Assembly (NCBI GenBank): GCA_027186245.1
Contig: CP114481.1
Span: forward strand, 18,631,501 to 18,695,500
Length of the DNA stretch: 64,000 nt
Direction: 5' to 3'
Origin: Coriaria nepalensis
Lineage: Eukaryota; Streptophyta; Magnoliopsida; Cucurbitales; Coriariaceae
The position numbers were made by a program, and so were the translations under genes. Each line of letters begins with the position of its first letter. Position 1 is the first letter of the stretch. This document shows, piece by piece, positions 1-55,233 of this stretch. Below the pieces are notes generated by a model, which was not told where the DNA came from, did not search any database, and saw only the letters and a list, made by a program, of their open reading frames with translations.

Positions 1-27
1 AAATCATATTATTGCGTCTCTTTTAGT

Positions 28-20654: not shown

Positions 20655-21360
20655 TTTTAGTCATTAAATCATTCTAAATCGCTTCGAAAGAAATTCGGCC
20701 TTTAAACATGACTTTCGTGCATAACTTGCAGTTATTCTATTGATGGCAACAATGTATTTGTTTAGCCTTAAAGTCATGTCATTGAGTCTCATCCACGCAT
20801 TAAATCATTCTAAATTAAGTTGAACGAATTCTATTTTCGCCCTTGAAACATGATTTTCTTACATAACTAGCAATTATTCTATTGAAGACAACAATGCAGT
20901 ATTTTAGCCTTAAAAAGTATATCATTCAGTCTTTTCATATCCTTATATTGTTTGAAAGCACTTCGAACAAATTCTATATTTGCATTTAAAACACGACTTT
21001 CATGCATAAGTTGCAATTTATCATTCTAAATTAAGTTCAACGAATTGTATTTTCGCCCTTCAAACATGATTTTTTACATAACTTGCAATTAATTTATTGA
21101 CGACAACAATGCATTATTTTAGCTTTAAAAAGTATTTCATTCAGTCTTTTCATATCATTAAATTGTTTGAAAGCACTTCGAACCAATTCTATATGTGCAT
21201 TTAAGACACGACTTTCATGCATAAGTTGCAATTGATCTATTGAAGGCAACTATGCATTTTTTTAGCTTTAAAATCATATTATTGCGTCTCTTTTAGTCAT
21301 TAAATCATTCTAAATCGCTTCGAAAGAAATTCGGCCTTTAAACATGACTTTCGTGCATAA
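20655..21360 (+). repeat. 636-bp tandem duplication, copy 1 (partner 21291-21996)
   Basis: A1 with 'gcttcgaaag', B1, C1 with 'tcatatccttatattg' and 'tttaaaacac', then the C-to-B junction at 21011, then B with 'cgaattgtatttt'. The order repeats 636 bp downstream. 636 is one trimer plus the 215-bp remainder of a truncated trimer. Confidence 0.84.
21011..21030 (+). other. Type-I junction 1 (C joined to B, about 205 bp lost)
   Basis: C sequence 'ttgcaattta' runs straight into B 'tcattctaaa'. The last third of C, all of A and the first bases of B are missing. The A landmark step here is 637 bp instead of two trimers. Junction form 'ttta-tcattc'. Confidence 0.9.
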
Positions 21361-21996
21361 CTTTCAGTTATTCTATTGATGGCAACAATGTATTTGTTTA
21401 GCCTTAAAGTCATGTCATTGAGTCTCATCCAGTCATTAAATCATTCTAAATTAATTTGAACGAATTCTATTTTCGCCCTTCAAACATGATTTTCTTACAT
21501 AACTAGCAATTATTCTATTGAAGACAACAATGCAGTATTTTAGCCTTAAAAAGTATATCATTCAGTCTTTTCATATCCTTATATTGTTTGAAAGCACTTC
21601 GAACAAATTCTATATTTGCATTTAAAACACGACTTTCATGCATAAGTTGCAATTTATCATTCTAAATTAAGTTGAACGAATTGTATTTTCGCCCTTCAAA
21701 CATGATTTTTTACATAACTTGCAATTAATTTATTGACGACAACAATGCATTATTTTAGCTTTAAAAAGTATTTCATTCAGTCTTTTCATATCATTAAATT
21801 GTTTGAAAGCACTTCGAACCAATTCTATATGTGCATTTAAGACACGACTTTCATGCATAAGTTGCAATTGATCTATTGAAGGCAACTATGCATTTTTTTA
21901 GCTTTAAAATCATATTATTGCGTCTCTTTTAGTCATTAAATCATTCTAAATCGCTTCGAAAGAAATTCGGCCTTTAAACATGACTTTCGTGCATAA
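21291..21996 (+). repeat. 636-bp tandem duplication, copy 2
   Basis: Same order of variants as copy 1, including the junction at 21647. Differences include 'catccagtcatt' for 'catccacgcatt' and 'taatttg' for 'taagttg', so conversion from neighbours has followed. Confidence 0.84.
21647..21666 (+). other. Type-I junction 2
   Basis: Identical in form to junction 1 and 636 bp from it. It is a copy made by the tandem duplication rather than a new event. Confidence 0.9.
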
Positions 21997-23964
21997 CTTG
22001 CAGTTAATCTATTGAAGGCAACAATGCATTTGTTTAGCCTTAAAGTCATGTCATTGAGTCTCATCCAGTCATTAAATCATTCTAAATTAATTTGAACGAA
22101 TTCTATTTTCGCCCTTCAAACATGATTTTCTACATAACTAGCAATTAATCTATTGAAGACAACAATGCAGTATTTTAGCCTTAAAAAGGATATCATTCAG
22201 TCTTTTCATATCATTAAATTGTTTGAAAGCACTTCGAACAAATTCTATATTTGCATTTAAGACACGACTTTCATGCATAAGTTGCAATTGATCTATTGAA
22301 GGCAACTATGCATTTTTTTAGCCTTAAAATCATATTATTGCGTCTCTTTTAGTCATTAAATCATTCTGAATCGCTTCGAACGAAATTCGGCCTTTAAACA
22401 TGAATTTCGTGCATAACTTGCAGTTAATCTATTGAAGGCAACAATGCATTTGTTTAGCCTTAAAGTCATGTCATTGAGTCTCATCCAGTCATTAAATCAT
22501 TCTAAATTAAGTTGAACGAATTCTATTTTCGCCCTTTCAACATGATTTTCTTACATAACTTGCAATTAATTTATTGACGACAACAATGCATTATTTTAGC
22601 TTTAAAAAGTATTTCATTCAGTCTTTTCATATCATTAAATTGTTTGAAAGGACTTCGAACCAATTCTATTTGTGCATTTAAGACACGACTTTCATGCATA
22701 AGTTGCAATTGATCTATTGAAGGCAACTATGCATTTTTTTAGCTTTAAAATCATATTATTGCGTCTCTTTTAGTCATTAAATCATTCTAAATCGCTTCGA
22801 AAGAAATTCGGCCTTTAAACATGACTTTCGTGCATAACTTGCAGTTAATCTATTGAAGGCAACAATGCATTTGTTTAGCCTTAAAGTCATGTCATTCAGT
22901 CTCATCCAGTCATTAAATCATTCTAAATTAATTTGAACGACTTCTATTTTCGCCCTTCAAACATGATTTTCTACATAACTAGCAATTAATCTATTGAAGA
23001 CAACAATGCATTATTTTAGCCTTAAAAAGTATATCATTCAGTCTTTTCATATCATTAAATTGTTTGAAAGCACTTCGAACAAATTCTATATTTGCATTTA
23101 AGACACGACTTTCATGCATAAGTTGCAATTGATCTATTGAAGGCAACTATGCATTTTTTTAGCTTTAAAATCATATTATTGCGTCTCTTTTAGTCATTAA
23201 ATCATTCTAAATTACTTCAAACAAAATTCGGCCTTTAAACATGACTTTCGTGCATAACTTGCAGTTAATCTATTGAAAGCAACAATGCATTTTTTTAGCT
23301 TTAAAGTCATGTCATTGAGTCTCATCCAGTCATTAAATCATTCTAAATTAAGTTGAACGAATTCTATTTGCGCCCTTAAAACATGATTTTTTTACATAAC
23401 TAGCAATTAATTTATTGACGACAACAATGCATTATTTTAGCTTTAAAAAGTATTTCATTCAGTCTTTTCATATCATTAAATTGTTGGAAAGCACTTCGAA
23501 CAAATTCTATATGTGCATTTAAGACACGACTTTCATGCGTAAGTTGCAATTGATCTATTGAAGGCAACTATGCATTTTTTTAGCTTTAAAATTATACTAT
23601 TGCGTCTCTTTTAGTCATTAAATCATTCTAAATCGCTTCGAACGAAATTCGGCCTTTAAACATGACTTTCGTGCATAACTTGCAGTTAATCTATTGAAGG
23701 CAACAATGCATTTGTTTAGCCTTAAAGTCATGTCATTGAGTCTCATCCAGTCATTAAATCATTCTAAATAAAGTTGAACAAATTCTATTTTCGCCCTTCA
23801 AACATGATTTTCTTACATAACTAGCAATTATTCTATTGAAGACAACAATGCAGTATTTTAACCTTAAAAAGTATATCATTCAGTCTTTTCATATCATTAA
23901 ATTGTTTGAAAGCACTTCGAACAAATTCTATATTTGCATTTAAGACACGACTTTCATGCATAAG

Positions 23965-23984
23965 TTGCAATTTATCATTCTAAA
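23965..23984 (+). other. Type-I junction 3
   Basis: Same 'ttgcaatttatcattc' form, 2318 bp after junction 2. It is followed by a B with the B1 mark 'ctagc' and the B2 marks 'tttattgacgac'. Confidence 0.9.
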
Positions 23985-25454
23985 TTAAGTTGAACGAATT
24001 CTATTTTCGCCCTTCAAACATGATTTTCTTACATAACTAGCAATTAATTTATTGACGACAACAATGCATTATTTTAGCTTTAAAAAGTATTTCATTCAGT
24101 CTTTTCATATCATTAATTTGTTTGAAAGCACTTCGAACCAATTCTATTTGTGCATTTAAGACACAACTTTCATGCATAACTTGTAATTGATCTATTGAAG
24201 GCAACTATGCATTTTTTTAGCCTTAAAGTCATATTATTGCGTCTCTTTTAGTCATTAAATCATTCTAAATTACTTCAAACGAAATTCGGCCTTTAAACAT
24301 GACTTTCGTGCATAACTTGCAGTTAATCTATTGAAGGCAACAATGCATTTGTTTAGCCTTAAAGTCATGTCATTGAGTCTCATCCAGTCATTAAATCATT
24401 CTAAATTAATTTGAACGAATTCTATTTTCGCCCTTGAAACATGATTTTCTTACATAACTAGCAATTAATCCATTGAAGAAAACAATGCATTATTTTAGCC
24501 TTAAAAAGTATATCATTCAGTCTTTCCATATCATTAAATTGTTTGAAAGCACTTCGAACAAATTCTATATTTGCATTTAAGACACGACTTTCATGCATAA
24601 GTTGCAATTGATCTATTGAAGGCAACTATGCATTTTTTTAGCCTTAAAATCATATTATTGCGTCTCCTTTAGTCATTAAATCATTCTAAATGGCTTCGAA
24701 CGAAATTCGGCCTTTAAACATGACTTTCGTGCATAACTTGCAGTTATTCTATTGAAGGCAACAATGTATTTGTTTAGCCTTAAAGTCATGTCATTGAGTC
24801 TCATCCAGTCATTAAATCATTCTAAATTAAGTTGAACAAATTCTATTTTCGCCCTTTAAACATGATTTTCTTACATAACTTGCAATTAATTTATTGACGA
24901 CAACAATGCAGTATTTTAGCTTTAAAAAGTATTTCATTCAGTCTTTTCATATCATTAAATTGTTTGAAAGCACTTCGAACCAATTCTATTTGTGCATTTA
25001 AGACACAACTTTCATGCATAACTTGTAATTGATCTATTGAAGGCAACTATGCATTTTTTTAGCCTTAAAGTCATATTATTGCGTCTCTTTTAGTCATTAA
25101 ATCATTCTAAATTACTTCAAACGAAATTCGGCCTTTAAACATGACTTTCGCGCATAACTTGCAGTTAATCTATTGAAGGCAACAATGCATTTGTTTAGCC
25201 TTAAAGTCATGTCATTGAGTCTCATCCATTCATTAAATCATTCTAAATTAAGTTGAACGAATTCTATTTTCGCCCTTTAAACATGATTTTCTTACATAAC
25301 TTGCAATTAATTTATTGACGACAACAATGCATTATTTTAGCTTTAAAAAGTATTTCATTCAGTCTTTTCATATCATTAAATTGTTTGAAAGGACTTCGAA
25401 CCAATTCTATTTGTGCATTTAAGACACGACTTTCATGCATAACTTGTAATTGAT

Positions 25455-27160
25455 CTATTGAAGGCAACTATGCATTTTTTTAGCCTTAAAGCCATATTAT
25501 TGCGTCTCTTTTAGTCATTAACTCATTCTAAATTACTTTAAACGAAATTCGGCCTTTAAACATGACTTTCGTGCATAACTTGCAGTTAATCTATTGAAGG
25601 CAACAATGCATTTGTTTAGCCTTAAAGTCATGTCATTGAGTCTCATCCAGTCATTAAATCATTCTAAATTAATTTGAACGAATTCTATTTTCGCCCTTCA
25701 AACATGATTTTCTTTCATAACTTCCAATTAATTTATTGACGACAGCAATGCATTATTTTAGCTTAAAAAAGTATTTCATTCAGTCTTTTCATATCATTAA
25801 ATTGTTTGAAAGCACTTCGAACAAATTCTATTTGTGCATTTAAGACACGACTTTCATGCATAAGTTGCAATTGATCTATTGAAGGCAACTATGCATTTTT
25901 TTAGCTTTAAAATCATATTATTGCGTCTCTTTTAGTTATTAAATCATTCCAAATCGCTTCGAACGAAATTCGGCCTTTAAACATGACTTTCGTGCGTAAC
26001 TTGCAGTTAATCTATTGAAGGCAACAATGCATTTGTTTAGCCTTAAAGTCATGTCATTGAGTCTCATCCACGCATTAAATCATTCTAAATTAAGTTGAAC
26101 GAATTCTATTTTCGCCCTTGAAACATGATTTTCTTACATAACTAGCAATTAATCCATTGAAGACAACAATGCATTATTTTAGCCTTAAAAAGTATATCAT
26201 TCAGTCTTTTCATATCATTAAATTGTTTGAAAGCACTTCGAACAAATTCTATATTTGCATTTAAGACACGACTTTCATGCATAAGTTGCAATTGATCTAT
26301 TGAAGGCAACTATGCATTTTTTTAGCCTTAAAATCATATTATTGCGTCTCTTTTAGTCATTAAATCATTCTAAATGGCTTCGAACGAAATTCGGCCTTTA
26401 AACATGACTTTCGTGCATAACTTGCAGTTATTCTATTGATGGCAACAATGTATTTGTTTAGCCTTAAAGTCATGTCATTGAGTCTCATCCAGTCATTAAA
26501 TCATTCTAAATTAAGTTGAACGAATTCTATTTTCGCCCTTTAAACATGATTTTCTTACATAACTTGCAATTAATTTATTGACGACAACAATGCAGTATTT
26601 TAGCTTTAAAAAGTATTTCATTCAGTCTTTTCATATCATTAAATTGTTTGAAAGCACTTCGAACCAATTCTATTTGTGCATTTAAGACACGACTTTCATG
26701 CATAACTTGTAATTGATCTATTGAAGGCAACTATGCATTTTTTTAGCCTTAAAGTCATATTATTGCGTCTCTTTTAGTCATTAAATCATTCTAAATTACT
26801 TCAAACGAAATTCGGCCTTTAAACATGACTTTCGTGCATAACTTGTAGTTAATCTATTGAAGGCAACAATGCATTTGTTTAGCCTTAAAGTCATGTCATT
26901 GAGTCTCATCCAGTCATTAAATCATTCTAAATTAAGTTGAACGAATTCTATTTTCGCCTTTCAAACATGATTTTCTTACATAACTTGCAATTAATTTATT
27001 GACGACAACGATGCATTATTTTAGCTTTAAAAAGTATTTCATTCAGTCTTTTCATATCATTAAATTGTTTGAAAGCACTTCGAACAAATTCTATATTTGC
27101 ATTTAAGACACGACTTTCATGCATAAGTTGCAATTGATCTATTGAAGGCAACTATGCATT
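25455..27160 (+). repeat. 2526-bp duplication, copy 1 (partner 27981-29686)
   Basis: Begins with 'ttaaagccatatt' (25487), then 'taactcattc', a B with 'cttccaatta' and 'gacagcaatg', 'gcttaaaaaag', and further rare variants in order. All recur 2526 bp (six trimers) downstream with about six or seven differences. Confidence 0.88.
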
Positions 27161-27980
27161 TTTTTTGCTTTAAAATCATATTATTGCGTCTCTTTTAGTC
27201 ATTAAATCATTCTAAATGACTTCAAACGAAATTCGGCCTTTAAACATGACTTTCGTGCATAACTTGCCGTTAATCTATTGAAAGCAACAATGCATTTTTT
27301 TAGCTTTAAAGTCATGTCATTGAGTTTCATCCAGTCATTAAATCATTCTAAATTAAGTTGAATGAATTCTATTTTCGCCCTTCAAACATGATTTTCTTAC
27401 ATAACTAGCAATTAATCTATTGACGACAACAATGCAGTATTTTAGCCTTAAAAAGTATATCATTCAGTCTTTTCATATCATTAAATTGTTTGAAAGCACT
27501 TCGAACAAATTCTATATTTGCATTTAAGACACGACTTTCATGCATAAGTTGCAATTGATCTATTGAAGGCAACTATGCATTTTTTTAGCTTTAAAATCAT
27601 ATTATTGCGTCTCTTTTAGTCATTAAATCATTCTAAATCGCTTCGAACGAAATTCGGCCTTTAAACATGACTTTCGTGCATAACTTGCAGTTAATCTATT
27701 AAAGGCAACAATGCATTTGTTTAGCCTTAAAGTCATGTCATTGAGTCTCATCCACGCATTAAATCATTCTAAATTAAGTTGAACGAATTCTATTTTCGCC
27801 CTTGAAACATGATTTTCTTACATAACTAGCAATTAATCCATTGAAGACAACAATGCATTATTTTAGCCTTAAAAAGTATATCATTCAGTCTTTTCATATC
27901 ATTAAATTGTTTGAAAGCACTTCGAACAAATTCTATATTTGCATTTAAGACACGACTTTCATGCATAAGTTGCAATTGAT

Positions 27981-29686
27981 CTATTGAAGGCAACTATGCA
28001 TTTTTTTAGCCTTAAAGCCATATTATTGCGTCTCTTTTAGTCATTAACTCATTCTAAATTACTTTAAACGAAATTCGGCCTTTAAACATGACTTTCGTGC
28101 ATAACTTGCAGTTAATCTATTGAAGGCAACAATGCATTTGTTTAGCCTTAAAGTCATGTCATTGAGTCTCATCCAGTCATTAAATCATTCTAAATTAATT
28201 TGAACGAATTCTATTTTCGCCCTTCAAACATGATTTTCTTACATAACTTCCAATTAATTTATTGACGACAGCAATGCATTATTTTAGCTTAAAAAAGTAT
28301 TTCATTCAGTCTTTTCATATCATTAAATTGTTTGAAAGCACTTCGAACAAATTCTATTTGTGCATTTAAGACACGACTTTCATGCATAAGTTGCAATTGA
28401 TCTATTGAAGGCAACTATGCATTTTTTTAGCTTTAAAATCATATTATTGCGTCTCTTTTAGTTATTAAATCATTCCAAATCGCTTCGAACGAAATTCGGC
28501 CTTTAAACATGACTTTCGTGCGTAACTTGCAGTTAATCTATTGAAGGCAACAATGCATTTGTTTAGCCTTAAAGTCATGTCATTGAGTCTCATCCACGCA
28601 TTAAATCATTCTAAATTAAGTTGAACGAATTCTATTTTCGCCCTTGAAACATGATTTTCTTACATAACTAGCAATTAATCCATTGAAGACAACAATGCAT
28701 TATTTTAGCCTTAAAAAGTATATCATTCAGTCTTTTCATATCATTAAATTGTTTGAAAGCACTTCGAACAAATTCTATATTTGCATTTAAGACACGACTT
28801 TCATGCATAAGTTGCAATTGATCTATTGAAGGCAACTATGCATTTTTTTAGCCTTAAAATCATATTATTGCGTCTCTTTTAGTCATTAAATCATTCTAAA
28901 TGGCTTCGAACGAAATTCGGCCTTTAAACATGACTTTCGTGCATAACTTGCAGTTATTCTATTGATGGCAACAATGTATTTGTTTAGCCTTAAAGTCATG
29001 TCATTGAGTCTCATCCAGTCATTAAATCATTCTAAATTAAGTTGAACGAATTCTATTTTCGCCCTTTAAACATGATTTTCTTACATAACTTGCAATTAAT
29101 TTATTGACGACAACAATGCAGTATTTTAGCTTTAAAAAGTATTTCATTCAGTCTTTTCATATCATTAAATTGTTTGAAAGCACTTCGAACCAATTCTATT
29201 TGTGCATTTAAGACACGACTTTCATGCATAACTTGTAATTGATCTATTGAAGGCAACTATGCATTTTTTTAGCCTTAAAGTCATATTATTGCGTCTCTTT
29301 TAGTCATTAAATCATTCTAAATTACTTCAAACGAAATTCGGCCTTTAAACATGACTTTCGTGCATAACTTGTAGTTAATCTATTGAAGGCAACAATGCAT
29401 TTGCTTAGCCTTAAAGTCATGTCATTGAGTCTCATCCAGTCATTAAATCATTCTAAATTAAGTTGGACGAATTCTATTTTCGCCTTTCAAACATGATTTT
29501 CTTACATAACTTGCAATTAATTTATTGACGACAACAATGCATTATTTTAGCTTTAAAAAGTATTTCATTCAGTCTTTTCATATCATTAAATTGTTGGAAA
29601 GCACTTCGAACAAATTCTATATTTGCATTTAAGACACGACTTTCATGCATAAGTTGCAATTGATCTATTGAAGGCAACTATGCATT
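27981..29686 (+). repeat. 2526-bp duplication, copy 2
   Basis: Second copy with private changes 'ttgcttagcc' (about 29401), 'gttggacg' (29463) and 'ttgttggaaag' (about 29591). Similarity continues weakly to about 29875. An older relative of the left edge lies at 19795. Confidence 0.88.
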
Positions 29687-30495
29687 TTTTTAGCTTTAAA
29701 ATCATATTATTGCGTCTCTTTTAGTCATTAAATCATTCTAAATTACTTCAAACGAAATTCGGCCTTTAAACATGACTTTCGTGCATAACTTGCTGTTAAT
29801 CTATTGAAAGCAACAATGCATTTTTTTAGCTTTAAAGTCATGTCATTGAGTCTCATCCAGTCATTAAATCATTCTAAATTAAGTTGAACGAATTCTATTT
29901 GTGCCCTTCAAACATGATTTTTTTACATAACTAGCAATTAATTTATTGACGACAACAATGCATTATTTTAGCTTTAAAAAGTATTTCATTCAGTCTTTTC
30001 ATATCATTAAATTGTTTGAAAGCACTTCGAACCACTTCTATTTGTGCATTTAAGACACGACTTTCATGCATAAGTTGCAATTGATCTATTGAAGGCAACT
30101 ATGCATTTTTTTAGCTTTAAAATCATACTATTGCGTCTCTTTTAGTCATTAAATCATTCTAAATCGCTTCGAACGAAATTCGGCCTTTAAACATGACTTT
30201 CGTGCATAACTTGCAGTTAATCTATTGAAGGCAACAATGCATTTGTTTAGCCTTAAAGTCATGTCATTGAGTCTCATCCAGTCATTAAATCATTCTAAAT
30301 TAAGTTGAACAAATTCTATTTTCGCCCTTCAAACATGATTTTCTTACATAACTAGCAATTATTCTATTGAAGACAACAATGCAGTATTTTAGCCTTAAAA
30401 AGTATATCATTCAGTCTTTTCATATCATTAAATTGTTTGAAAGCACTTCGAACAAATTCTATATTTGCATTTAAGACACGACTCTCACGCATAAG

Positions 30496-30515
30496 TTGCA
30501 ATTTATCATTCTAAA
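30496..30515 (+). other. Type-I junction 4
   Basis: Same 'ttgcaatttatcattc' form, 6531 bp after junction 3. The flanking segments 23.2-24.0 kb and 29.75-30.5 kb also share 'attgaaagcaac' and 'tgatttttttac'. The B after the junction is B1 rather than B2. Confidence 0.9.
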
Positions 30516-31099
30516 TTAAGTTGAACGAATTCTATTTTCGCCCTTCAAACATGATTTTCTTACATAACTAGCAATTAATCTATTGAAGACAACAATGCAG
30601 TATTTTAGCCTTAAAAAGTATATCATTCAGTCTTTTCATATCATTAAATTGTTTGAAAGCACTTCGAACAAATTCTATATTTGCATTTAAGACACGACTT
30701 TCATGCATAAGTTGCAATTGATCTATAGAAGGCAACTATGCATTTTTTTAGCCTTAAAATCATATTATTGCGTCTCTTTTAGTTATTAAATTATCCTAAA
30801 TCGCTTCGAACGAAATTCGGCCTTTAAACATGACTTTCGTGCATAACTTGCTGTTAATCTATTGAAGGCAACAATGCATTTGTTGAGCCTTAAAGTCATG
30901 TCATTGAGTCTCATCCAGTCATTAAATCATTCTAAATTAAGTTGAACGAATTCTATTTTCGCCCTTCAAACATGATTTTTTACATAACTTGCAATTAATT
31001 TATTGACGACAACAATGCATTATTTTAGCTTTAAAAAGTATTTCATTCAGTCTTTTCATATCATTAAATTGTTTGAAAGCAATTCGAACCAATTCTATT

Positions 31100-34000
31100 T
31101 GTGCATTTAAGACACGACTTTCATGCATAACTTGGAATTGATCTATTGAAGGCAACTATGCATTTGGTTGGCCTTAAAATCATATTATTGCGTCTCTTTT
31201 AGTCATTAAATCATTCTAGATTACTTCAAACGAAATTCGGCCTTTAAACATGACTTTCGTGCATAACTTGCAGTTAATCTATTGAAGGCAACAATGCATT
31301 TGTTTAGCCTTAAAGTCATGTCATTGAGTCTCATCCAGTCATTAAATCATTCTAAATTAATTTGAACGAATTCTATTTTCGCCCTTCAAACATGATTTTC
31401 TTACATAACTAGCAATTAATCTATTGAAGACAACAATGCATTATTTTAGCTTTAAAAAGTATTTCATTCAGTCTTTTCAAATCATTAAATTGTTTGAAAG
31501 CACTTCGAACCAATTCTATTTGTGCATTTAAGACACGACTTTCATGCATAACTTGCAATTGATCTATTGAAGGCAACTATGCATTTTTTTAGCCTTAAAG
31601 TCATATTATTGCGTGTCTTTTAGTCATTAAATCATTCTAAATTACTTCAAACGAAATTCGGCCTTTAAACATGACTTTCTTGCATAACTTGCAGTTAATC
31701 TATTAAAGGCAACAATGCATTTGTTTAGCCTTAAAGTCATGTCATTGAGTCTCATCCAGTCATTAAATCATTCTAAATTAAGTTGAACGAATTCTATTTT
31801 CGCCCTTCAAACATGATTTTCTTACATAACTTGCAATTAATTTATTGACGACAACAATGCATTATTTTAGCTTTAAAAAGTATTTCATTCAGTCTTTTCA
31901 TATCATTAAATTGTTTGAAAGCACATCGAACCAATTCTATTTGTGCATTTAAGACACTACTTTCATGCATAACTTGTAATTGATCTATTGAAGGCAACTA
32001 TGCATCTTTTTAGCCTTAAAGTCATATTATTGCGTCTCTTTTAGTCACTAAATCATTCTAAATTACTTCAAACGAAATTCGGCCTTTAAACATGACTTTC
32101 GTGCATAACTTGCAGATAATCTATTGAAGGCAACAATGCATTTGTTTAGCCTTAAAGTCATGTCATTGAGTCTCATCCAATCATTAAATCATTCTAAATT
32201 AAGTTGAACGAATTCTATTTTCGCCCTTTAAACATGATTTTCTTACATAACTTGCAATTAATTTATTGACGACAACAATGCAGTATTTTAGCTTTAAAAA
32301 GTATTTCATTCAGTCTTTTCATATCATTAAATTGTTTGAAAGCACTTCGAACCAATTCTATTTGTGCATTTAAGACACAACTTTCATGGATAACTTGTAA
32401 TTGATCTATTGAAGGCAACTATGCGTCTTTTTAGCCTTAAAGTCATATTATTGCGTCTCTTTTAGTCACTAAATCATTCTAAATTATTTCAAACGAAATT
32501 CGGCCTTTAAACATGACTTTCGTGCATAACTTGCAGATAATCTATTGAAGGCAACAATGCATTTGTTTAGCCTTACAGTCATGTCATTGAGTCTCATCCA
32601 GTCATTAAATCATTCTAAATTAATTTGAACGAATTCTATTTTCGCCCTTCAAACATGATTTTCTTACATAACTAGCAATTAATCTATTGATGACAACAAT
32701 GTAGTATTTTAGCCTTAAAAAGTATTTCATTCAGTCTTTTCAAATCATTAAATTGTTTGAAAGCACTTCGAACCACTTCTATTTGTGCATTTAAGACACG
32801 ACTTTCATGCATAACTTGCAATTGATCTATTGAAGGCAACTATGAATTTTTTTAGCCTTAAAGTCATATTATTGCGTCTCTTTTAGTCATTAAATCACTC
32901 TAAATTACTCCAAACGAAATTCGGCCTTTAAACATGACTTTCTTGCATAACTTGCAGTTAATCTATTAAAGGCAACAATGCATTTGTTTAGCCTTAAAGT
33001 CATGTCATTGAGTCTCATCCAGTCATTAAATCATTCTAAATTAAGTTGAACGAATTCTATTTTCGCCCTTCAAACATGATTTTCTTACATAACTTGCAAT
33101 TAATTTATTGACGACAACAATGCATTATTTTAGCTTTAAAAAGTATTTCATTCAGTCTTTTCATATCATTAAATTGTTTGAAAGCACTTCGAACCAATTC
33201 TATTTGTGCATTTAAGACACGACTTTCATGCATAACTTGTAATTGATCTATTGAAGGCAACTATGCATCTTTTTAGCCTTAAAGTCATATTATTGCGTCT
33301 CTTTTAGTCACTAAATCATTCTAAATTACTTCAAACGAAATTCGGCCTTTAAACATGACTTTCGTGCATAACTTGCAGATAATCTATTGAAGGCAACAAT
33401 GCATTTGTTTAGCCTTACAGTCATGTCATTGAGTCTCATCCAGTCATTAAATCATTCTAAATTAATTTGAACGAATTCTATTTTCGCCCTTCAAACATGA
33501 TTTTCTTACATAACTAGCAATTAATCTATTGATGACAACAATGCAGTATTTTAGCCTTAAAAAGTATTTCATTCAGTCTTTTCAAATCATTAAATTGTTT
33601 GAAAGCACTTCGAACCACTTCTATTTGTGCATTTAAGACACGACTTTCATGCATAACTTGCAATTGATCTATTGAAGGCAACTATGAATTTTTTTAGCCT
33701 TAAAGTCATATTATTGCGTCTCTTTTAGTCATTAAATCATTCTAAATTACTTCAAACGAAATTCGGCCTTTAAACATGACTTTCTTGCATAACTTGCAGT
33801 TAATCTATTCAAGGCAACAATGCATTTGTTTAGCCTTAAAGTCATGTCATTGAGTCTCATCGAGTCATTAAATCATTCTAAATTAAGTTGAACGAATTCT
33901 ATTTTCGCCCTTCAAACATGATTTTCTTACATAACTTGCAATTAATTTATTGACGACAACAATGCATTATTTTAGCTTTAAAAAGTATTTCATTCAGTCT

Positions 34001-36120: not shown

Positions 36121-36204
36121 TTGTTTGAAAGCACTTCGAACAAATTCTATATTTGCATTTAAGACACGACTTTCATGCATAAGTTGCAATTGATCTATAA
36201 AAGG

Positions 36205-37605: not shown

Positions 37606-38868
37606 ACAATGCATTTGTTTAGCCTTAAAGTCATGTCATTGAGTCTCATCCAGTCATTAAATCATTCTAAATTAAGTTGAACGAATTCTATTTTCGCCCA
37701 TCAAACATGATTTTCTTACATAACTTGCAATTAATTTATTGACGACAACAATGCATTATTTTAGATTTAAAAAGTATTTCATTTAGTCTTTCATATCATT
37801 AAATTGTTTGAAAGGACTTCGAACCAATTCTATTTGTGCACTTAAGACACGACTTTCATGCATAACTTGTAATTGATCTATTTAATGCAACTATGCATAT
37901 TTTTAGCCTTAAAGTCATATTATTGCGTCTCTTTTAGTCATTAAATCATTCTAAATTACTTCAAACGAAATTCGGTCTTTAAACATGACTTTCGTGCTTA
38001 ACTTGCAGTTAATCTATTGAAGGCAACAATGCATTTTGTTTAGCCTTAAAGTCATGTCATTGACTCTCATCCAGTCATTAAATCATTCTAAATTAATTTG
38101 AACGAATTCTATTTTCGCCCTTCAAACATGATTTTCTTACATAACTAGCAATTAATTTATTGAAGACAACAATGCAGTATTTTAGCCTTAGAAAGTATAT
38201 CATTCAGACTTTTCATATCATTAAATTGTTTGAAAGCACTTCGAACAAATTCTATATTTGCATTTAAGACACGACTTTCATGCATAAGTTGCAATTGATC
38301 TATTGAAGGAAACTATGCATTTTTTGAGCCTTAAAATCATATTATTGCGTCTCTTTTAGTCATTAAATCATTCTAAATCGCTTCGAACGAAATTCAGCCT
38401 TTAAACATGACTTTCGTGCATAACTTGCAGTTAATCTATTGAAGGCAACAATGCATTTGTTTAGCCTTAAAGTCATGTCATTGAGTCTCATCCAGTCATT
38501 AAATCATTCTAAATTAAGTTGAACGAGTTCTATTTTCGCCCATCAAACATGATTTTCTTACATAACTTGCAATTAATTTATTGACGACAACAATGCAGTA
38601 TTTTAGCCTTAAAAAGTATATCATTCAGTCTTTTCATATCATTAAATTGCTTGAAAGCACTTCGAACAAATTCTATATTTGTATTTAAGACACGACTTTC
38701 ATGCATAAGTTGCAATTCATCTATAGAAGGCAACTATGCATTTTTTGAGCCTTAAAATCATATTATTGCGTCTCTTCTAGTCATTAAATCATTCTAAATC
38801 GCTTCGAACGAAATTCGGCCTTTAAACATGACTTTCGTGCATAACTTGCAGTTAATATATTGAAAGCG
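37468..38868 (+). repeat. 1263-bp duplication, copy 2
   Basis: Copy 2 overlaps the end of the copy 1 match, as expected for a tandem duplication. The match stops at 'atattgaaagcgac' (about 38859) against 'atattgaaggcaac'. Confidence 0.9.
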
Positions 38869-41655
38869 ACATTGCATTTTTTTAGCTTTAAAGTCATGTC
38901 ATTGAGTCTCATCCAGTCATTAAATCATTCTAAATTAAGTTGAACGAATTCTATTTTCGCCCTTCAAACATGATTTTCTTACATAACTAGCAATTAATCT
39001 ATTGAAGACAACAATGCAGTATTTTAGCCTTAGAAAGTATATCATTCAGACATTTCATATCATTAAATTGTTTGAAAGCACTTCGAACAAATTCTATATT
39101 TGCATTTAAGACACGACTTTCATGCATAAGTTGCAATTGATCTATAGAAGGCAACTATGCATTTTTTGAGCCTTAAAATCATATTATTGCGTCTCCTTTA
39201 GTCATAAAATCATTCTAAATTACTTCAAACGAAATTCGGCCTTTAAACATGACTTTCGTGCATAACTTGCAGTTAATCTATTGAAGGCAACAATGCATTT
39301 GTTTAGCCTTAAAGTCATGTCATTGAGTCTCATCCAGTCATTAAATCATTCTAAATTAAGTTGAACGAGTTCTATTTTCGCCCATCAAACATGATTTTCT
39401 TACATAACTAGCAATTAATCTATTGAAGACAACAATGCAGTATTTTAGCCTTAAAAAGTATATCATTCAGACTTTTCATATCATTAAATTGTTTGAAAGC
39501 ACTTCGAACAAATTCTATATTTGCATTTAAGACACGACTTTCATGCATAAGTTGCAATTGATCTATAGAAGGCAACTATGCATTTTTTTAGCCTTAAAGT
39601 CATATTATTGCGTCTCCTTTAGTCATAAAATCATTCTAAATTACTTCAAACGAAATTCGGCCTTTAAACATGACTTTCGTGGATAACTTGCAGTTAATCT
39701 ATTGAAGGCAACAATGCATTTGTTTAGCCTTAAAGTCGTGTCATTGAGTCTCATCCAGTCATTAAATCATTCTAAATTAAGTTGAACGAATTTTATTTTC
39801 GCCCTTCAAACATGATTTTTTACATAACTTGCAATTAATTTATTGACGACAACAATGCATTATTTTAGCTTTAAAAAGTATTTCATTCTGTCTTTTCATA
39901 TCATTAAATTGTTTGAAAGCACTTCGAACCAATTCTATTTGTGCATTTAAGACACGACTTTCATGCATAACTTGTAATTGATCTATTGAAGGCAACTATG
40001 CATTTTTTTTGCCTTAAAGTCATATTATTGCATCTCTTTTAGTCATTAAATCATTCTAAATTACTTCAAACGAAATTCGGCCTTTAAACATGACTTTCGT
40101 GCATAACTTGCAGTTAATCTATTGAAGGCAACAATGCATTTGTTTAGCCTTAAAGTCATGTCATTGAGTCTCATCCAGTCATTAAATCATTCTAAATTAA
40201 GTTGAACGAATTCTATTTTCGCCCTTCAAACATGATTTTTTACATAACTTGCAATTAATTTATTGACGACAACAATGCATTATTTTAGTTTTAAAAAGTA
40301 TTTCATTCAGTCTTTTCATATCTTTAAATTGTTTGAAAGCACTTCGAACCAATTCTATTTGTGCATTTAAGACATGACTTTCATGCATAACTTATAATTG
40401 ATCTATTGAAGGCAACTATGCATCTTTTTAGCCTTAAAGTCATATTATTGCGTCTCTTTTAGTCACTAAATCATTCTAAATTACTTCAAACGAAATTCGG
40501 CCTTTAAACATGACTTTCGTGCATAACTTGCAGATAATCTATTGAAGGCAACAATGCATTTGTTTAGCCTTAAAGTCATGTCATTGAGTCTCATCCAGTC
40601 ATTAAATCATTCTAAATTAATTTGAACGAATTCTATTTTCGCCCTTCAAACATGATTTTCTTACATAACTAGCAATTAATCTATTGAAGACAACAATGCA
40701 GTATTTTAGCCTTAAAAAGTATATCATTTAGTCTTTTCATATCATTAAATTGTTTGAAAGCACTTCGAACAAATTCTATATTTGCATTTAAGATACGACT
40801 TTCACGCATAAGTTGCAATTGATCTACTGAAGGCAACTATGCATTTTTTTAGCCTTAAAATCATATTATTGCGTCTCTTTTAGTCATTAAATCATTCTAA
40901 ATCGCTTCGAACGAAATTCGGCCTTTAAACATGACTTTCGTGCATAACTTGCAGTTAATCTATTGAAGGCAACAATGCATTTGTTTAGCCTTAAAGTCAT
41001 GTCATTGAGTCTCATCCAGTCATTAAATCATTCTAAATTAAGTTGAACGAATTCAATTTTCGCCCATCAAACATGATTTTCTTACATAACTTGCAATTAA
41101 TTTATTGACGACAACAATGCATTATTTTAGATTTAAAAAGTATTTCATTCAATCTTTCATATCATTAAATTGTTTGAAAGGACTTCGAACCAATTCTATT
41201 TGTGCACTTAAGACACGATTTTCATGCATAACTTGTAATTGATCTATTTAATGCAACTATGCATTTTTTTAGCCTTAAAGTCATATTATTGCGTCTCTTT
41301 TAGTCATTAAATCATTCTAAATTACTTCAAACGAAATTCGGCCTTTAAACATGACTTTCCTGCTTAAGTTGCAGTTAATCTATTGAAAGCAAAAATGCAT
41401 TTTGTTTAGCCTTAAAGTCATGTCATTGACTCTCATCCAATCATTAAATCATTCTAAATTAATTTGAACGAATTCTATTTTCGCCCTTCAAACATGATTT
41501 TCTTACATAACTAGCAATTAATCTATTGAAGACAACAATGCAGTATTTTAGCCTTAAAAAGTATATCATTCAGTCTTTTCATATCATTAAATTGTTTGAA
41601 AGCACTTCGAACAAATTCTATATTTGCATTTAAGACACGACTTTCATGCATAAAA

Positions 41656-41675
41656 TTGCAATTAATCATTCTAAA
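41656..41675 (+). other. Type-I junction 5
   Basis: Form 'ttgcaattaatcattc' (A before 'atc' instead of T). Preceded by the private 'cataaaattg'. C1 is joined to B2 and A is missing. Confidence 0.9.
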
Positions 41676-42292
41676 TTAAGTTGAACGAATTCTATTTTCG
41701 CCTTTCAAACATGATTTTCTTACATAACTTGCAATTAATTTATTGACGACAACAATGCATTATTTTAGCTTTAAAAAGTATTTCATTCAGTCTTTTCATA
41801 TCATTAAATTGTTTGAAAGCACTTCGAACCAATTCTATTTGTGCATTTAAGACACGACTTTCATGCATAACTTGTAATTGATCTATTGAAGGCAACTATG
41901 CATTTTTTTAGCCTTAAAGTCATATTATTGCGTCTGTTTTAGTCATTAAATCATTCTAAATTACTTCAAACGAAATCCGGCCTTTAAACATGACTTTCTT
42001 GCATAACTGGCAGTTAATCTATTGAAGGCAACAATGCATTTGTTTAGCCTTAAAGTCATGTCATTGAGTCTCATCCAGTCATTAAATCATTCTAAATTAA
42101 TTTGAACGAATTCTATTTTCGCCCTTCAAACATAATTTTCTTACATAACTAGCAATTAGACTATTGAAGACAACAATGCAGTATTTTAGCCTTAAAAAGT
42201 ATATCATTCAGTCTTTTCATATCATTAAATTGTTTGAAAGCACTTCGAACAAATTCTATATTTGCATTTAAGACACGACTTTCATGCATAAG

Positions 42293-42312
42293 TTGCAATT
42301 GATCATTCTAAA
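42293..42312 (+). other. Type-I junction 6
   Basis: Form 'ttgcaattgatcattc', which keeps the C1 sequence 'ttgatc' intact up to the joint. 637 bp after junction 5. Confidence 0.9.
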
Positions 42313-43771
42313 TTAAGTTGAACGAATTCTATTTTCGCCCTTCAAACATGATTTTCTTACATAACTTGCAATTAATTTATTGACGACAACAATGCATTAT
42401 TTTAGCTTTAAAAAGTATTTCATTCAGTCTTTTCATATCATTAAATTGTTTGAAAGCACTTCGAACCAATTCTATTTGTGCATTTAAGACACGACTTTCA
42501 TGCATAACTTGTAATTGATCTATTGAAGACAACTATGCATTTTTTTAGCCTTAAAGTCATATTATTGCGTCTCTTTTAGTCATTAAATCATTCGAAATTA
42601 CTTCAAACGAAATTCGGCTTTTAAACATGACTTTCGTGCATAACTTGCAGTTAATCTGTTGAAGGCAACAATGCATTTGTTTAGCCTTAAAGTCATTTCA
42701 TTGAGTCTCATCCAGTCATTAAATCATTCTAAATTAATTTGAACGAATTCTATTTTCGCCCTTCAAACATGATTTTCTTACATAACTAGCAATTAATCTA
42801 TTGAAGACAACAATGCAGTATTTTAGCCTTAAAAAGTATATCATTTAGTCTTTTCATATCATTAAATTGTTTGAAAGCACTTCGAACAAATTCTATATTT
42901 GCATTTAAGATACGACTTTCACGCATAAGTTGCAATTGATCTACTGAAGGCAACTATGCATTTTTTTAGCCTTAAAATCATATTATTGCGTCTCTTTTAG
43001 TCATTAAATCATTCTAAATCGCTTCGAACGAAATTCGGCCTTTAAACATGACTTTCGTGCATAACTTGCAGTTAATCTATTGAAGGCAACAATGCATTTG
43101 TTTAGCCTTAAAGTCATGTCATTGAGTCTCATCCAGTCATTAAATCATTCTAAATTAAGTTGAACGAATTCAATTTTCGCCCATCAAACATGATTTTCTT
43201 ACATAACTTGCAATTAATTTATTGACGACAACAATGCATTATTTTAGATTTAAAAAGTATTTCATTCAATCTTTCATATCATTAAATTGTTTGAAAGGAC
43301 TTCGAACCAATTCTATTTGTGCACTTAAGACACGATTTTCATGCATAACTTGTAATTGATCTATTTAATGCAACTATGCATTTTTTTAGCCTTAAAGTCA
43401 TATTATTGCGTCTCTTTTAGTCATTAAATCATTCTAAATTACTTCAAACGAAATTCGGCCTTTAAACATGACTTTCCTGCTTAAGTTGCAGTTAATCTAT
43501 TGAAAGCAAAAATGCATTTTGTTTAGCCTTAAAGTCATGTCATTGACTCTCATCCAATCATTAAATCATTCTAAATTAATTTGAACGAATTCTATTTTCG
43601 CCCTTCAAACATGATTTTCTTACATAACTAGCAATTAATCTATTGAAGACAACAATGCAGTATTTTAGCCTTAAAAAGTATATCATTCAGTCTTTTCATA
43701 TCATTAAATTGTTTGAAAGCACTTCGAACAAATTCTATATTTGCATTTAAGACACGACTTTCATGCATAAC

Positions 43772-43791
43772 TTGCAATTAATCATTCTAAA
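43772..43791 (+). other. Type-I junction 7
   Basis: Form 'ttgcaattaatcattc', the duplicate of junction 5 at +2116. 1479 bp after junction 6. Confidence 0.9.
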
Positions 43792-44408
43792 TTAAGTTGA
43801 ACGAATTCTATTTTCGCCTTTCAAACATGATTTTCTTACATAACTTGCAATTAATTTATTGACGACAACAATGCATTATTTTAGCTTTAAAAAATATTTC
43901 ATTCAGTCTTTTCATATCATTAAATTGTTTGAAAGCACTTCGAACCAATTCTATTTGTGCATTTAAGACACGACTTTCATGCATAACTTGTAATTGATCT
44001 ATTGAAGGCAACTATGCATTTTTTTAGCCTTAAAGTCATATTATTGCGTCTGTTTTAGTCATTAAATCATTCTAAATTACTTCAAACGAAATCCGGCCTT
44101 TAAACATGACTTTCTTGCATAACTGGCAGTTAATCTATTGAAGGCAACAATGCATTTGTTTAGCCTTAAAGTCATGTCATTGAGTCTCATCCAGTCATTA
44201 AATCATTCTAAATTAATTTGAACGAATTCTATTTTCGCCCTTCAAACATAATTTTCTTACATAACTAGCAATTAGACTATTGAAGACAACAATGCAGTAT
44301 TTTAGCCTTAAAAAGTATATCATTCAGTCTTTTCATATCATTAAATTGTTTGAAAGCACTTCGAACAAATTCTATATTTGCATTTAAGACACGACTTTCA
44401 TGCATAAG

Positions 44409-44428
44409 TTGCAATTGATCATTCTAAA
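44409..44428 (+). other. Type-I junction 8
   Basis: Form 'ttgcaattgatcattc', the duplicate of junction 6 at +2116. 637 bp after junction 7. Confidence 0.9.
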
Positions 44429-45261
44429 TTAAGTTGAACGAATTCTATTTTCGCCCTTCAAACATGATTTTCTTACATAACTTGCAATTAATTTATTGAC
44501 GACAACAATGCATTATTTTAGCTTTAAAAAGTATTTCATTCAGTCTTTTCATATCATTAAATTGTTTGAAAGCACTTCGAACCAATTCTATTTGTGCATT
44601 TAAGACACGACTTTCATGCATAACTTGTAATTGATCTATTGAAGACAACTATGCATTTTTTTAGCCTTAAAGTCATATTATTGCGTCTCTTTTAGTCATT
44701 AAATCATTCGAAATTACTTCAAACGAAATTCGGCTTTTAAACATGACTTTCGTGCATAACTTGCAGTTAATCTGTTGAAGGCAACAATGCATTTGTTTAG
44801 CCTTAAAGTCATTTCATTGAGTCTCATCCAGTCATTAAATCATTCTAAATTAATTTGAACGAATTCTATTTTCGCCCTTCAAACATGATTTTCTTACATA
44901 ACTAGCAATTAATCTACTGAAGACAACAATGCAGCATTTTAGCCTTAAAAAGTATATCATTCAGTCTTTTCATATCACTGAATTGTTTGAAAGCACTTCG
45001 AACAAACTCTATTTTTGCATTTAGGACACGACTTTCATGCATAAGTTGCAATTGATCTATTGAAGGCAACTATGCATTTTTTTAGCTTTAAAATCATATT
45101 ATTGCGTCTCTTTTAGTCATTAAATCATTCTAAATCGCTTCGAACGAAATTCGGCCTTTAAACATGACTTTCGTGCATAACTTGCAGTTAATCTATTGAA
45201 GGCAACAATGCATTTGTTTAGCCTTAAAGTCATGTCATTGATTCTCATCCAGTCATTAAAT

Positions 45262-46740
45262 CATTCTAAATTAAGTTGAAGGAATTCTATTTTCGTCCTT
45301 CAAACATGATTTTCTTACATAACTAGCAATTAATCTATTGAAGACAACAATGCAGTATTTTAGCCTTAAAAAGTATATCATTTAGTCTTTTCATAACATT
45401 AAATTGTTTGGAAGCACTTCGAACAAAATCTATATTTGCATTTAAGACACGACTTTCATGCATAAGTTGCAATTGATCTATTGAAGGCAACTATGCATTT
45501 TTTTAGCCAAAGAATCATATTATTGCATCTCTTTTAGTCATTAAATCATTCTAAATCGTTTCAAACGAAATTCGGCCTTTAAAGATGACTTTCGTGCATA
45601 ACTTGCAGTTAATCTATTGAAGGCAACAATGCATTTGTTTAGCCTTAATGTCATGTCATTGAGTCTCATCCAGTCATTAAATCATTCTAAATTAAGTTGA
45701 ACGAATTCTATTTTGGCCCTTCAAACATGATTTTCTTACATAACTTGCAATTAATTTATTGACGACAACAATGCATTATCTTAGCTTTAAAAAGTATTTC
45801 ATTCAGTCTTTTCATATCATTAAATTGTTTGAAAGCACTTCGAACCAATTCTATTCGTGCATTTAAGACACGACTTTCATGCATAACCTGTAATTGATCT
45901 ATGGAAGGCAACTATGCATTTGGTTAGCCTTAAAGTCATATTATTGCGTCTCTTTTAGTCATTAAATCATTTTAAATTACTTCAAACGAAATTCGGCCTT
46001 TAAACATGACTTTCGTGCATAACTTGCAGTTAATCTATTGAAGGCAACAATGCATTTGTTTAGCCTTAAAGTCATGTCATTGAGTCTCATCCAGTCATTA
46101 AATCATTCTAAATTAATTTGAACGAATTCTATTTTCGCCCTTCAAACATGATTTTCTTACATAACTTGCAATTAATTTATTGGCGACAACAATGCATTAT
46201 TTTAGCTTTAAAAAGTATTTCATTCAGTCTTTTCATATCATTAAATTGTTTGAAAGCACTTCGAACCAATTCTATTTGTGCATTTACGACACGACTTTCA
46301 TGCATAACTTGTAATTGATCTATTGAAGGCAACTATGCATTTTTTTAGCCTTAAAGTCATATTACTGCGTCTCTTTTAGTCATTAAATCATTCTAAATTA
46401 CTTCAAACGAAATTCGGCCTTTAAACATGACTTTCGTGCATAACTTGTAGTTAATCTATTGAAGGCAACAATGCATTTGTTTAGCCTTAAAGTCATGTCA
46501 TTGAGTCTCATCCAGTCATTAAATCAGTCTAAATTAATTTGAACGAATTCTATTTTCGCCCTTCAAACATGATTTTCTTACATAACTAGCAATTAATCTA
46601 TTGAAGACAACAATGCAGTATTTTAGCCTTAAAAAGTATATCATTTAGTCTTTTCATATCATTAAATTGTTTGAAAGCACTTCGAACAAATTCTATATTT
46701 GCATTTAAGACACGACTTTCATGCATAAGTTGCAATTAAT
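45262..46740 (+). repeat. 1479-bp duplication, copy 1
   Basis: Starts inside B at 'attctaaattaagttgaagg' and ends at the type-I junction at 46730-46749. The first about 675 bp are repeated immediately after that junction, with 'ttttcgtcc', 'cataacatt', 'aaaatctata', 'agccaaagaatc' and 'ttttggccc' in order. Confidence 0.88.
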
Positions 46741-46749
46741 CATTCTAAA
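46730..46749 (+). other. Type-I junction 9 (also a duplication breakpoint)
   Basis: Form 'ttgcaattaatcattc'. The B sequence on its right is the start of the 1479-bp repeat. This joint therefore coincides with the boundary between the two repeat copies. Confidence 0.9.
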
Positions 46750-47414
46750 TTAAGTTGAAGGAATTCTATTTTCGTCCTTCAAACATGATTTTCTTACATA
46801 ACTAGCAATTAATCTATTGAAGACAACAATGCAGTATTTTAGCCTTAAAAAGTATATCATTTAGTCTTTTCATAACATTAAATTGTTTGGAAGCACTTCG
46901 AACAAAATCTATACTTGCATTTAAGACACGACTTTCATGCATAAGTTGCAATTGATCTATTGAAGGCAACTATGCATTTTTTTAGCCAAAGAATCATATT
47001 ATTGCATCTCTTTTAGTCATTAAATCATTCTAAATCGTTTCAAACGAAATTCGGCCTTTAAAGATGACTTTCGTGCATAACTTGCAGTTAATCTATTGAA
47101 GGCAACAATGCATTTGTTTAGCCTTAATGTCATGTCATTGAGTCTCATCCAGTCATTAAATCATTCTAAATTAAGTTGAACGAATTCTATTTTGGCCCTT
47201 CAAACATGATTTTCTTACATAACTTGCAATTAATTTATTGACGACAACAATGCATTATCTTAGCTTTAAAAAGTATTTCATTCAGTCTTTTCATATCATT
47301 AAATTGTTTGAAAGCACTTCGAACCAATTCTATTCGTGCATTTAAGACACGACTTTCATGCATAACCTGTAATTGATCTATGGAAGGCAACTATGCATTT
47401 GGTTAGCCTTAAAG
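46741..47414 (+). repeat. 1479-bp duplication, partial copy 2
   Basis: Matches 45262-45935 at +1479. I noted one difference, 'tatacttgc' (46911) for 'tatatttgc'. The match ends at 'catatttttgcg' versus 'catattattgcg'. Confidence 0.88.
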
Positions 47415-48208
47415 TCATATTTTTGCGTCTCTTTTTGTCATTAAATCATTCTAAATTACTTGAAACGAAATTCGGCCTTTAAACATGACTTTCGTGCATA
47501 ACTTGCAGTTAATCGATTAAAGGCAACAATGCATTTTTTTAGCCATAAAGTCATGTCATTGAGTCTCATCCAGTCATTAAATCATTCTAAATTAAGTTGA
47601 ACGAATTCTATTTTCGCCCTTAAAACATGATTTTCTTACATAACTAGCAATTAATCTATTGAAGACAACAATGCAGTATTTTAGCCGTAAAAAGTATATC
47701 ATTTAGTCTTTTCATATCATTAAATTGTTTGGAAGCACTTCGAACAAATTCTATATTTGCATTTAAGACACGACTTTCATGCATAAGTTGCAATTGATCT
47801 ATTGAAGGCAACTATGCATTTTTTTAGCCTTACAATCATATTATTGCGTCTCTTTTAGTCATTAAATCATTCTAAATCGCTTCGAACGAAATTCGGCCTT
47901 GAAACATGACTTTCGTGCATAACTTGCAGTTAATCTATTGAAGGCAACAATGCATTTGTTTAGCCTTAAAGTCATGTCATTGAGTCTCATCTAGTCATTA
48001 AATCATTCTAAATTAAGTTGAACGAATTCTATTTTCGCCCTTCAAACATGATTTTCTTACATAACTAGCAATTAATCTATTGAAGACAACAATGCAGTAT
48101 TTTAGCCTTAAAAAGTATATCATTCAGTCTTTTCATATCATTAAATTGTTTCAAAGCACTACGAACAAATTCTATATTTGCATTTAAGACACGACTTTCA
48201 TGCATAAG

Positions 48209-48228
48209 TTGCAATTGATCATTCTAAA
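48209..48228 (+). other. Type-I junction 10
   Basis: Form 'ttgcaattgatcattc', 1479 bp after junction 9. It is followed by a B2 with 'gaattcaatttt' and by C2 with 'cataacctgtaattg'. It is the last type-I joint in the window. Confidence 0.9.
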
Positions 48229-52700: not shown

Positions 52701-52875
52701 TTTTAGTCGTTAAATCATTCTAAATCGCTTTGACCGAAATTCGGCCTTTAAACATGACTTTCGTGCATAACTTGCAGTTAATCTATTGAAGGCAACAATG
52801 CATTTGTTTAGCCTTAAAGTCATGTCATTGACTCTCATCCAGTCATTAAATCATTCTAAATTAATTTGAACGAAT

Positions 52876-55091: not shown

Positions 55092-55233
55092 CATTAAATT
55101 TTTTGAAAGCACTTCGAACCAATTCTATTTGTGCATTTAAGACACGACTTTCGTGCATAACTTGTAATTGATCTATTGAAGGCAACAATGCATTTGTTTA
55201 GCCTTAAAGTCATGTCATTGAGTCTCATCCACT
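55092..55233 (+). repeat. C/A hybrid monomer 1
   Basis: Starts as C2 ('aaattttttgaaagc', 'cataacttgtaattg') and ends as A ('caacaatgcatttgtttagcc', shown in part, then 'aaagtcatgtcattgag'). It is followed directly by B. Length 142 bp, so the exchange was in register. One full monomer's worth of sequence is missing from this trimer. Confidence 0.9.

What the first reader, a model, noticed from the sequence alone, without database searches (positions are those of the whole stretch)
21011..48228. Ten out-of-register C-to-B junctions at one fixed position
Ten times, C position about 81 ('ttgcaatt') is fused to B position about 8 ('atcattc'), always deleting about 205 bp that includes all of A. 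Three joint forms exist: 'tttatc' (four copies), 'ttaatc' (three) and 'ttgatc' (three). The joint has a short 'atc' overlap and is not homologous in register. Either one founder deletion spread by block copying and conversion, or the spot is a recurrent break site.
Basis: partly seen in the sequence, partly recalled or inferred. Interest (0 to 1): 0.75.

Follow-up and report, generated by a model that had tools for sequence, protein, structure and literature searches.

The report
One misjoined satellite repeat, copied seventeenfold
In a large repetitive DNA array, one out-of-step join between two repeat units probably happened once and was then copied to many places, so it acts as a natural tag showing how such arrays copy and reshuffle themselves.

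Summary
The window is an unbroken satellite of 421-bp trimers (A-B-C). Ten joints fuse the same C point to the same B point, in three one-base forms (4 T, 3 A, 3 G). The assembly (316 Mb; window on contig C1) has 17 such joints, all within 231 kb of C1. Sixteen of 17 share a near-identical block across the joint with another joint; the downstream four echo J7-J10, 169 kb away. Flanks of differently formed joints are more alike than matched intact sites for about 200 bp left and 100-150 bp right, then not: the decay expected of one founder whose flanks were later reshuffled by in-register recombination. Against it: trees reject a single clade for the right flanks, J9's right flank matches an intact B from the joint onward, and the copied blocks leave six unlinked groups. 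A recurrent break site is not supported: apart from two 10-bp duplications, 273.5 kb holds no other out-of-register joint and no reciprocal one. One apparently independent joint at homologous points (C to A, 209-bp tandem duplication) was found on C2, so a weak site preference stays open. 'Deletion of 205 bp' is undetermined: duplication of 216+421k bp gives the same joint.

The parts
1..64000 (+). satellite array of 421-bp trimers A-B-C (monomers about 140 bp), no interruption
   Evidence: whole window covered, 17 discontinuities; 0 ORFs of 100 aa
21011..21026 (+). J1, joint form T (joint base 21019)
21647..21662 (+). J2, form T; near copy of J1
   Evidence: 519-bp block with 1 mismatch containing J1 and J2
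23965..23980 (+). J3, form T
30496..30511 (+). J4, form T; copy of J3 on the left and for 75 bp on the right, then another B haplotype
41656..41671 (+). J5, form A
42293..42308 (+). J6, form G (3-bp ATC overlap)
43772..43787 (+). J7, form A; copy of J5
44409..44424 (+). J8, form G; copy of J6
46730..46745 (+). J9, form A; right flank matches an intact B
48209..48224 (+). J10, form G
40581..42800 (+). block carrying J5 and J6, repeated at 42698-44916 with J7 and J8 (2219 bp, 2 mismatches)
45259..45942 (+). intact B context near-identical (684 bp, 1 mismatch) to the right flank of J9, 46738-47421
21003..21018 (+). C-monomer side of J1: in intact C this is the 5' arm (12 nt) and the first 4 loop bases of a hairpin (TGCATAAGTTGC / GCAACTATGCA, 16-nt loop); the break lies in the loop
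55146..60958 (+). five in-register C-to-A joints (hybrid monomers), 4 of 5 at consensus 394 to 110

Best explanation
The ten joints (17 in the array) descend from one founder out-of-register joint between C377 and B162 of a 421-bp trimer satellite, sealed on a 3-bp ATC overlap (G form). The founder was a microhomology join or template switch. It then spread through in-register unequal exchange and block copying, mostly within a few kb and once over 169 kb. Crossover or conversion with intact neighbours wore away the shared flanks to about 100-200 bp a side. The joint base changed to A and to T in sub-lineages: A could be conversion from intact B161, T a substitution. Shown: the joint, its copies, its confinement in the assembly and the decay of linkage. 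Inferred: the single founder, G as the founder form, the joining pathway, the direction (duplication or deletion) and the cause of the base changes.
For: Near-identical blocks with a joint inside both copies involve 16 of 17 joints, all but U1: J5+J6/J7+J8 2258 bp with 3 mismatches, J10/D4 3649 bp with 24, J9/D3 1905 bp with 22, J7+J8/D1+D2 1679 bp with 17, U3/J6 487 bp with 4, and across forms J3(T)/J5(A) 655 bp with 12. Cross-form flank similarity exceeds region-matched intact sites: left bins to 200 bp p 0.048, 0.013, 0.011, 0.005, then 0.50 at 200-300; right bins 0-50 and 50-100 p 0.008, 0.006, then 0.11, 0.29, 0.70 (1000 draws, not corrected for the number of bins; 10 of 17 joints, with J2, J7, J8, D1-D4 dropped as near copies; left controls limited to the same C subtype). 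Left 200 bp: 31 of 31 cross-form pairs above the control median, controls of all subtypes. All 17 C-to-B joints found in the assembly lie in C1:18618046-18849149, while the satellite was read elsewhere on C1 and on C2. No other out-of-register joint (two 10-bp duplications aside) in 273.5 kb, nor in 40 kb elsewhere.
Against: Right-flank trees reject one clade (p 1.7e-12), and the joint label needs 7 changes on the right tree, 6 on the left. At the threshold the joints fall into six unlinked groups, of which one mixes forms. J9's right flank matches an intact B (684 bp, 1 mismatch) from the joint itself, as a fresh joint would. On the right only 17 of 31 cross-form pairs are above the control median; U1, J4 and J9 carry a second B haplotype. 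The closest stretch shows no excess in several tests: left 15-60 bp against the same C subtype (p 0.30-0.96), left 30 bp likewise (p 0.54), right 15-60 bp in the window-only test (p 0.25-0.65); there is little variation there. Intact sites 15753, 26500 and 33872 match the U3 right flank as well as J3 does, so the haplotype is not private to joints. Three base states exactly at the joint are unusual for mutation alone. A homologous joint exists on C2.
Confidence: 0.76

Rival explanations
1. Recurrent break and join site: the loop of the C hairpin and the ATCATTC stretch are repeatedly broken and joined on ATC, so the forms and clusters are separate events.
For: The break lies in the loop of the lowest-energy hairpin among sliding 45-mers of the 421-bp unit (starts 356-360: -8.1 to -8.2 kcal/mol, median -2.4). 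All 10 window joints have C at 372, against 89 of 147 intact C monomers, which fits a preference for the stem-forming subtype, but equally one founder. One joint at homologous points, C to A, on C2: two 209-bp copies with 2 mismatches and a 3-bp ATC overlap. J9's right flank begins at the joint. Right-flank trees reject one clade. Three base states at the joint.
Against: All 17 C-to-B joints found are in one 231-kb stretch. Flank linkage across forms decays with distance. The B side has no notable structure. ATC is an ordinary overlap: 8.3% of 155349 out-of-register position pairs have 3 bp or more.
Confidence: 0.14
2. Few founders (two or three), for example one for G/T and one for A (blunt C376 to B161), each then copied.
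For: The A form reads strictly as a blunt joint with B161. J9 and J5/J7 share no rare left variant: their only shared departure from the C-subtype consensus within 300 bp is one carried by 18 of 77 intact sites. The right flanks of the A form alone are rejected as one clade (p 0.0027). J9 and J10 groups stay unlinked to the others by blocks.
Against: J3 (T) and J5 (A) share a 655-bp block across the joint. Among 628 other sites the best match of U2's left 150 bp (G) is J9 (A). The A form differs from the others by one base only.
Confidence: 0.08
3. Assembly artefact from collapsed or misjoined reads in the satellite.
For: No reads could be examined.
Against: Seventeen joints with the same break to within one base but different flanks, spacings and joint bases; random misassembly would not place them at one phase (inference).
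Confidence: 0.02

Closest known systems
Structural variants of higher-order repeats in human alpha satellite (PMC9549924, passages seen)
   Same: A variant order of monomers within a homogeneous higher-order array, present in many copies
   Different: That review says such variants usually can be explained as in/dels of whole monomers and that hybrid monomers usually keep the monomer length; here the joint is out of register and shifts the phase by about 65-75 bp
Unequal exchange and break-induced replication models of satellite evolution (PMC8997354, passages seen)
   Same: Out-of-register duplication, nested copying, homogenisation by exchange and conversion
   Different: Those are models; here one joint serves as a marker whose linkage decay can be measured
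Microhomology-mediated events in maize cent10 (Wolfgruber 2016, as reported in the passage of PMC8997354 seen; the paper itself was not read)
   Same: Short overlap at a joint in a centromeric satellite region
   Different: Here the joint is within one satellite and was afterwards multiplied

Membership tests
Higher-order-repeat structural variant | tandem array with a higher-order unit of distinct monomers | tested here: met
   421-bp trimer over the whole window
Higher-order-repeat structural variant | variant monomer order shared by several copies through descent | tested here: met
   copied blocks containing the joint, 16 of 17 joints
Higher-order-repeat structural variant | gain or loss of whole monomers, phase kept (the usual case in PMC9549924) | tested here: not met
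   skip of 205 positions, against 134-142 or 285 for the in-register joints
Microhomology-mediated joint | one to several bp shared at the break | tested here: inconclusive
   3 bp in the G form, 0 in the A form; 3 bp or more is common by chance (8.3% of position pairs)
Microhomology-mediated joint | dependence on an end-joining or replication-repair pathway | not testable with these tools
   needs mutants
Recurrent break hotspot | several independent origins at the same site | tested here: inconclusive
   17 joints fit one founder best, though right-flank trees disagree; one probable independent case on C2
Centromeric satellite | association with the centromeric histone | not tested
   no chromatin data; only the large extent of the array is known

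The most novel reading that the evidence does not exclude
The hairpin loop of the C monomer and the ATCATTC stretch form a preferred break-and-join pair: C1 and C2 made the same joint to the base independently (C to B and C to A), so hairpin-loop breakage seeds new higher-order units in this satellite.
Probability: 0.15. Interest if true: 0.6.

Novelty: new member of a known kind. Interest (0 to 1): 0.36.

Why it matters
A rare out-of-register joint is a nearly unique tag inside an otherwise anonymous array. Its 17 copies show that blocks of up to several kb move, in one case over 169 kb, and that recombination erodes linkage within about 100-200 bp on each side. Models of satellite homogenisation need such quantities. 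The C2 case offers a simple test of whether hairpin loops seed new repeat units.

Tried and rejected
Not taken as recurrence, because J3/J4 show flank swapping.

Tandem-duplication reading of each joint: identity of the stretches left and right of the joint at d = 216+421k. Highest values: J2 98.3% (637), J4 97.7% (216 bp only), J6 97.5% (637), J10 97.5% (1058), J9 97.2% (1479; first 421 bp 99.8%), J5 97.0% (1479, over 638 bp). No significance test was run, and alignment ends at a joint are trivial when one copy lacks it, so this does not fix the direction.

Near matches of the joint pattern (up to 2 mismatches): 28 places, of which 17 are the joints. Of the other 11, five (two on C6, one each on C9, C10, C15) were read and belong to one dispersed repeat with no BLAST match to the satellite; one is the C2 joint; five (C6:9224642, C8, C11, C12, C14) were not read. 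With up to 3 mismatches a longer pattern lists 44 places: 17 joints, the C2 joint, and 26 that I take from the printed letters to be intact-like B or A sites; one of the 26 (C1:22361502) was read and is an intact A with a small insertion. The tool says that counts of repeats are lower bounds.

Reciprocal joint: none in 273.5 kb. In the assembly, 921 places match its pattern with up to 2 mismatches and the first 100 are printed, none exact; the one closest in letters (C1:18331982) was read and is an intact loop variant. The rest were not read.

Chance that the C2 joint falls on the same points: the histogram gives about 2909 distinct out-of-register joints with 3 bp or more in the trimer, about 323 per monomer pair (my arithmetic). 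One founder per 313.5 kb of unselected array, scaled to about 9.4 Mb (65968 matches times 142 bp, not verified as all satellite), gives about 30 events and about 0.09 expected coincidences. Suggestive only.

Literature: (listings), with passages of two reviews. No listed title or abstract start describes a multiplied out-of-register joint; the papers themselves were not read beyond those passages, and most subscription journals are not held.

Full report
WHAT IS THERE. The window is a single satellite array with a 421-bp unit of three related monomers, A, B and C. It lies at C1:18631501-18695500 of a 316-Mb, 20-contig genome that is not named to me. A wrap-around alignment with free jumps gives 17 discontinuities in the window and 31 in the 273.5 kb made of the window and fetched stretches (C1:18561501-18825500 and 18842501-18852000): 17 C-to-B joints skipping 205 positions, 10 in-register C-to-A, 2 in-register A-to-C, and 2 duplications of 10 bp. 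In a further 40 kb (20 kb on C2, 20 kb elsewhere on C1) there were 7 in-register joints and no out-of-register one.

HOW MANY IN THE GENOME. The joint pattern has 17 exact matches in the assembly, all on C1 between 18618046 and 18849149: three upstream (G, G, G; here U1-U3), ten in the window (J1-J10), four downstream (A, G, A, G; D1-D4). A longer pattern with up to 3 mismatches gives the same 17 C-to-B joints. The tool warns that counts of repeats are lower bounds. The satellite itself is much larger: I read it at C1 18.05, 21.16 and 22.36 Mb and at C2 12.28-12.31 Mb, and the printed, capped lists of related matches run on C1 from 17.76 to beyond 24 Mb.

COPIES. J1/J2, J3/J4 and J5+J6/J7+J8 lie in near-identical blocks that contain the joint. 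With a looser threshold 16 of 17 joints share such a block with another joint; U1 does not. The downstream four repeat the forms and spacing of J7-J10 (638, 2320, then 1901 instead of 1480: one 421-bp unit more), and their near flanks match in blocks of 1679-3649 bp. The blocks leave six groups that are not linked to each other: U1; U2-U3-J6-J8-D2 (all G); J1-J2 (T); J3-J4-J5-J7-D1 (T and A); J9-D3 (A); J10-D4 (G). So copying is shown inside the groups, and common origin of the groups rests on the next test.

ONE FOUNDER OR MANY. I compared flanks of joints of different form with intact sites within 6 kb of each, using 10 of the 17 joints (J2, J7, J8, D1-D4 dropped as near copies). The excess similarity is confined to about 200 bp on the left and 100-150 bp on the right and is zero beyond (p values of 0.005 to 0.05 per bin, uncorrected). 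That decay is what linkage to one founder gives. Nearest-neighbour lists agree in part: for the right 421 bp, J3 (T) has U3 (G) as its best match of 627, and U3 has J3 among its best, tied with intact sites at 15753, 26500 and 33872; among the joints D2, J5 and J6 follow. Results against: the right-flank tree rejects one clade; right flanks fall into two haplotype classes, so only 17 of 31 cross-form pairs exceed the control median, against 31 of 31 on the left; J9's right flank equals an intact B from the joint on; and in the first 15-60 bp, where there is little variation, no excess is seen against controls of the same subtype or in the window alone. J4, a clear copy of J3 up to 75 bp right of the joint, shows that right flanks do get exchanged close to it.

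THE JOINT BASE. G is the intact C base, A is the intact B base, T is neither. The G form has a 3-bp ATC overlap. I take G as founder, A as conversion from intact B or mutation, and T as mutation. This is inference; three states at one base is a weak point of the single-founder reading.

DELETION OR DUPLICATION. The same joint results from deleting 205+421k bp or from duplicating 216+421k bp. J9 and J10 show raised identity of neighbouring stretches at d = 1479 and 1058, as a duplication would, but this was not tested for significance and does not decide it. The reciprocal joint is absent from the 273.5 kb; in the assembly none of the 100 printed of 921 near matches is exact, and the likeliest one is an intact loop variant.

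HAIRPIN. The break lies in the 16-nt loop of a hairpin that is the minimum-energy fold of the C fragment (-9.3 kcal/mol, z -2.65) and the lowest of the sliding 45-mers of the unit. The matching B fragment does not fold so (-3.2, z 0.44); the matching A fragment folds more stably (-11.5, z -3.01) but into another structure. The B side of the joint has no notable structure (-2.3, z 0.10). The hairpin may have prompted the founder break; one founder cannot show it.

THE C2 CASE. At C2:12282281, in an array 85-88% like the C1 consensus by BLAST, the same loop point of C is joined to the homologous point of A. There are two 209-bp copies (2 mismatches), intact sequence on both outer sides and a 3-bp ATC overlap. 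The first copy is 97.1-99.5% like four other full-length stretches nearby, so the likeness of the two copies does not date the event. The partner monomer differs and both flanks are local, so I read it as a separate event. I found it by searching for the joint, so it is selected, and a rough estimate gives about 0.09 such coincidences by chance. It leaves a site preference possible but unproved.

VERDICT. A real, well-described out-of-register joint, most likely one event multiplied by ordinary satellite turnover. It is useful as a tag; I see no new mechanism.

Noticed in passing
window 55146-60958 and C1:18698201-18703553 (L016): Ten in-register C-to-A joints, eight of them at consensus 394 to 110, form a second family of variant units; 9 of 10 are placed by the alignment at the 3' arm of the C hairpin, though the exact switch point is ambiguous within identical sequence.
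   Followed up: partly
window 1721 and 5935: Two 10-bp tandem duplications (TAAATCATTC) in A, at the position homologous to the B side of the joint.
   Followed up: no
L035 882 (C2:12282281): A C-to-A joint at homologous points: 209-bp tandem duplication with ATC overlap.
   Followed up: yes
L036-L035, C2:12277499-12282430: Seven in-register B-to-C joints (consensus 174 to 317) give shorter units next to trimers.
   Followed up: no
L030-L034: A dispersed repeat family (unclassified) shares TTGCAATTGATCATTC or a near form of it with the joint, apparently by chance; no BLAST match to the satellite.
   Followed up: partly
C1:6889238-6945526: Regularly spaced matches (CATAACTTGCAATTCATCATTT) suggest another, diverged array of the same superfamily; the stretch was not read.
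   Followed up: no
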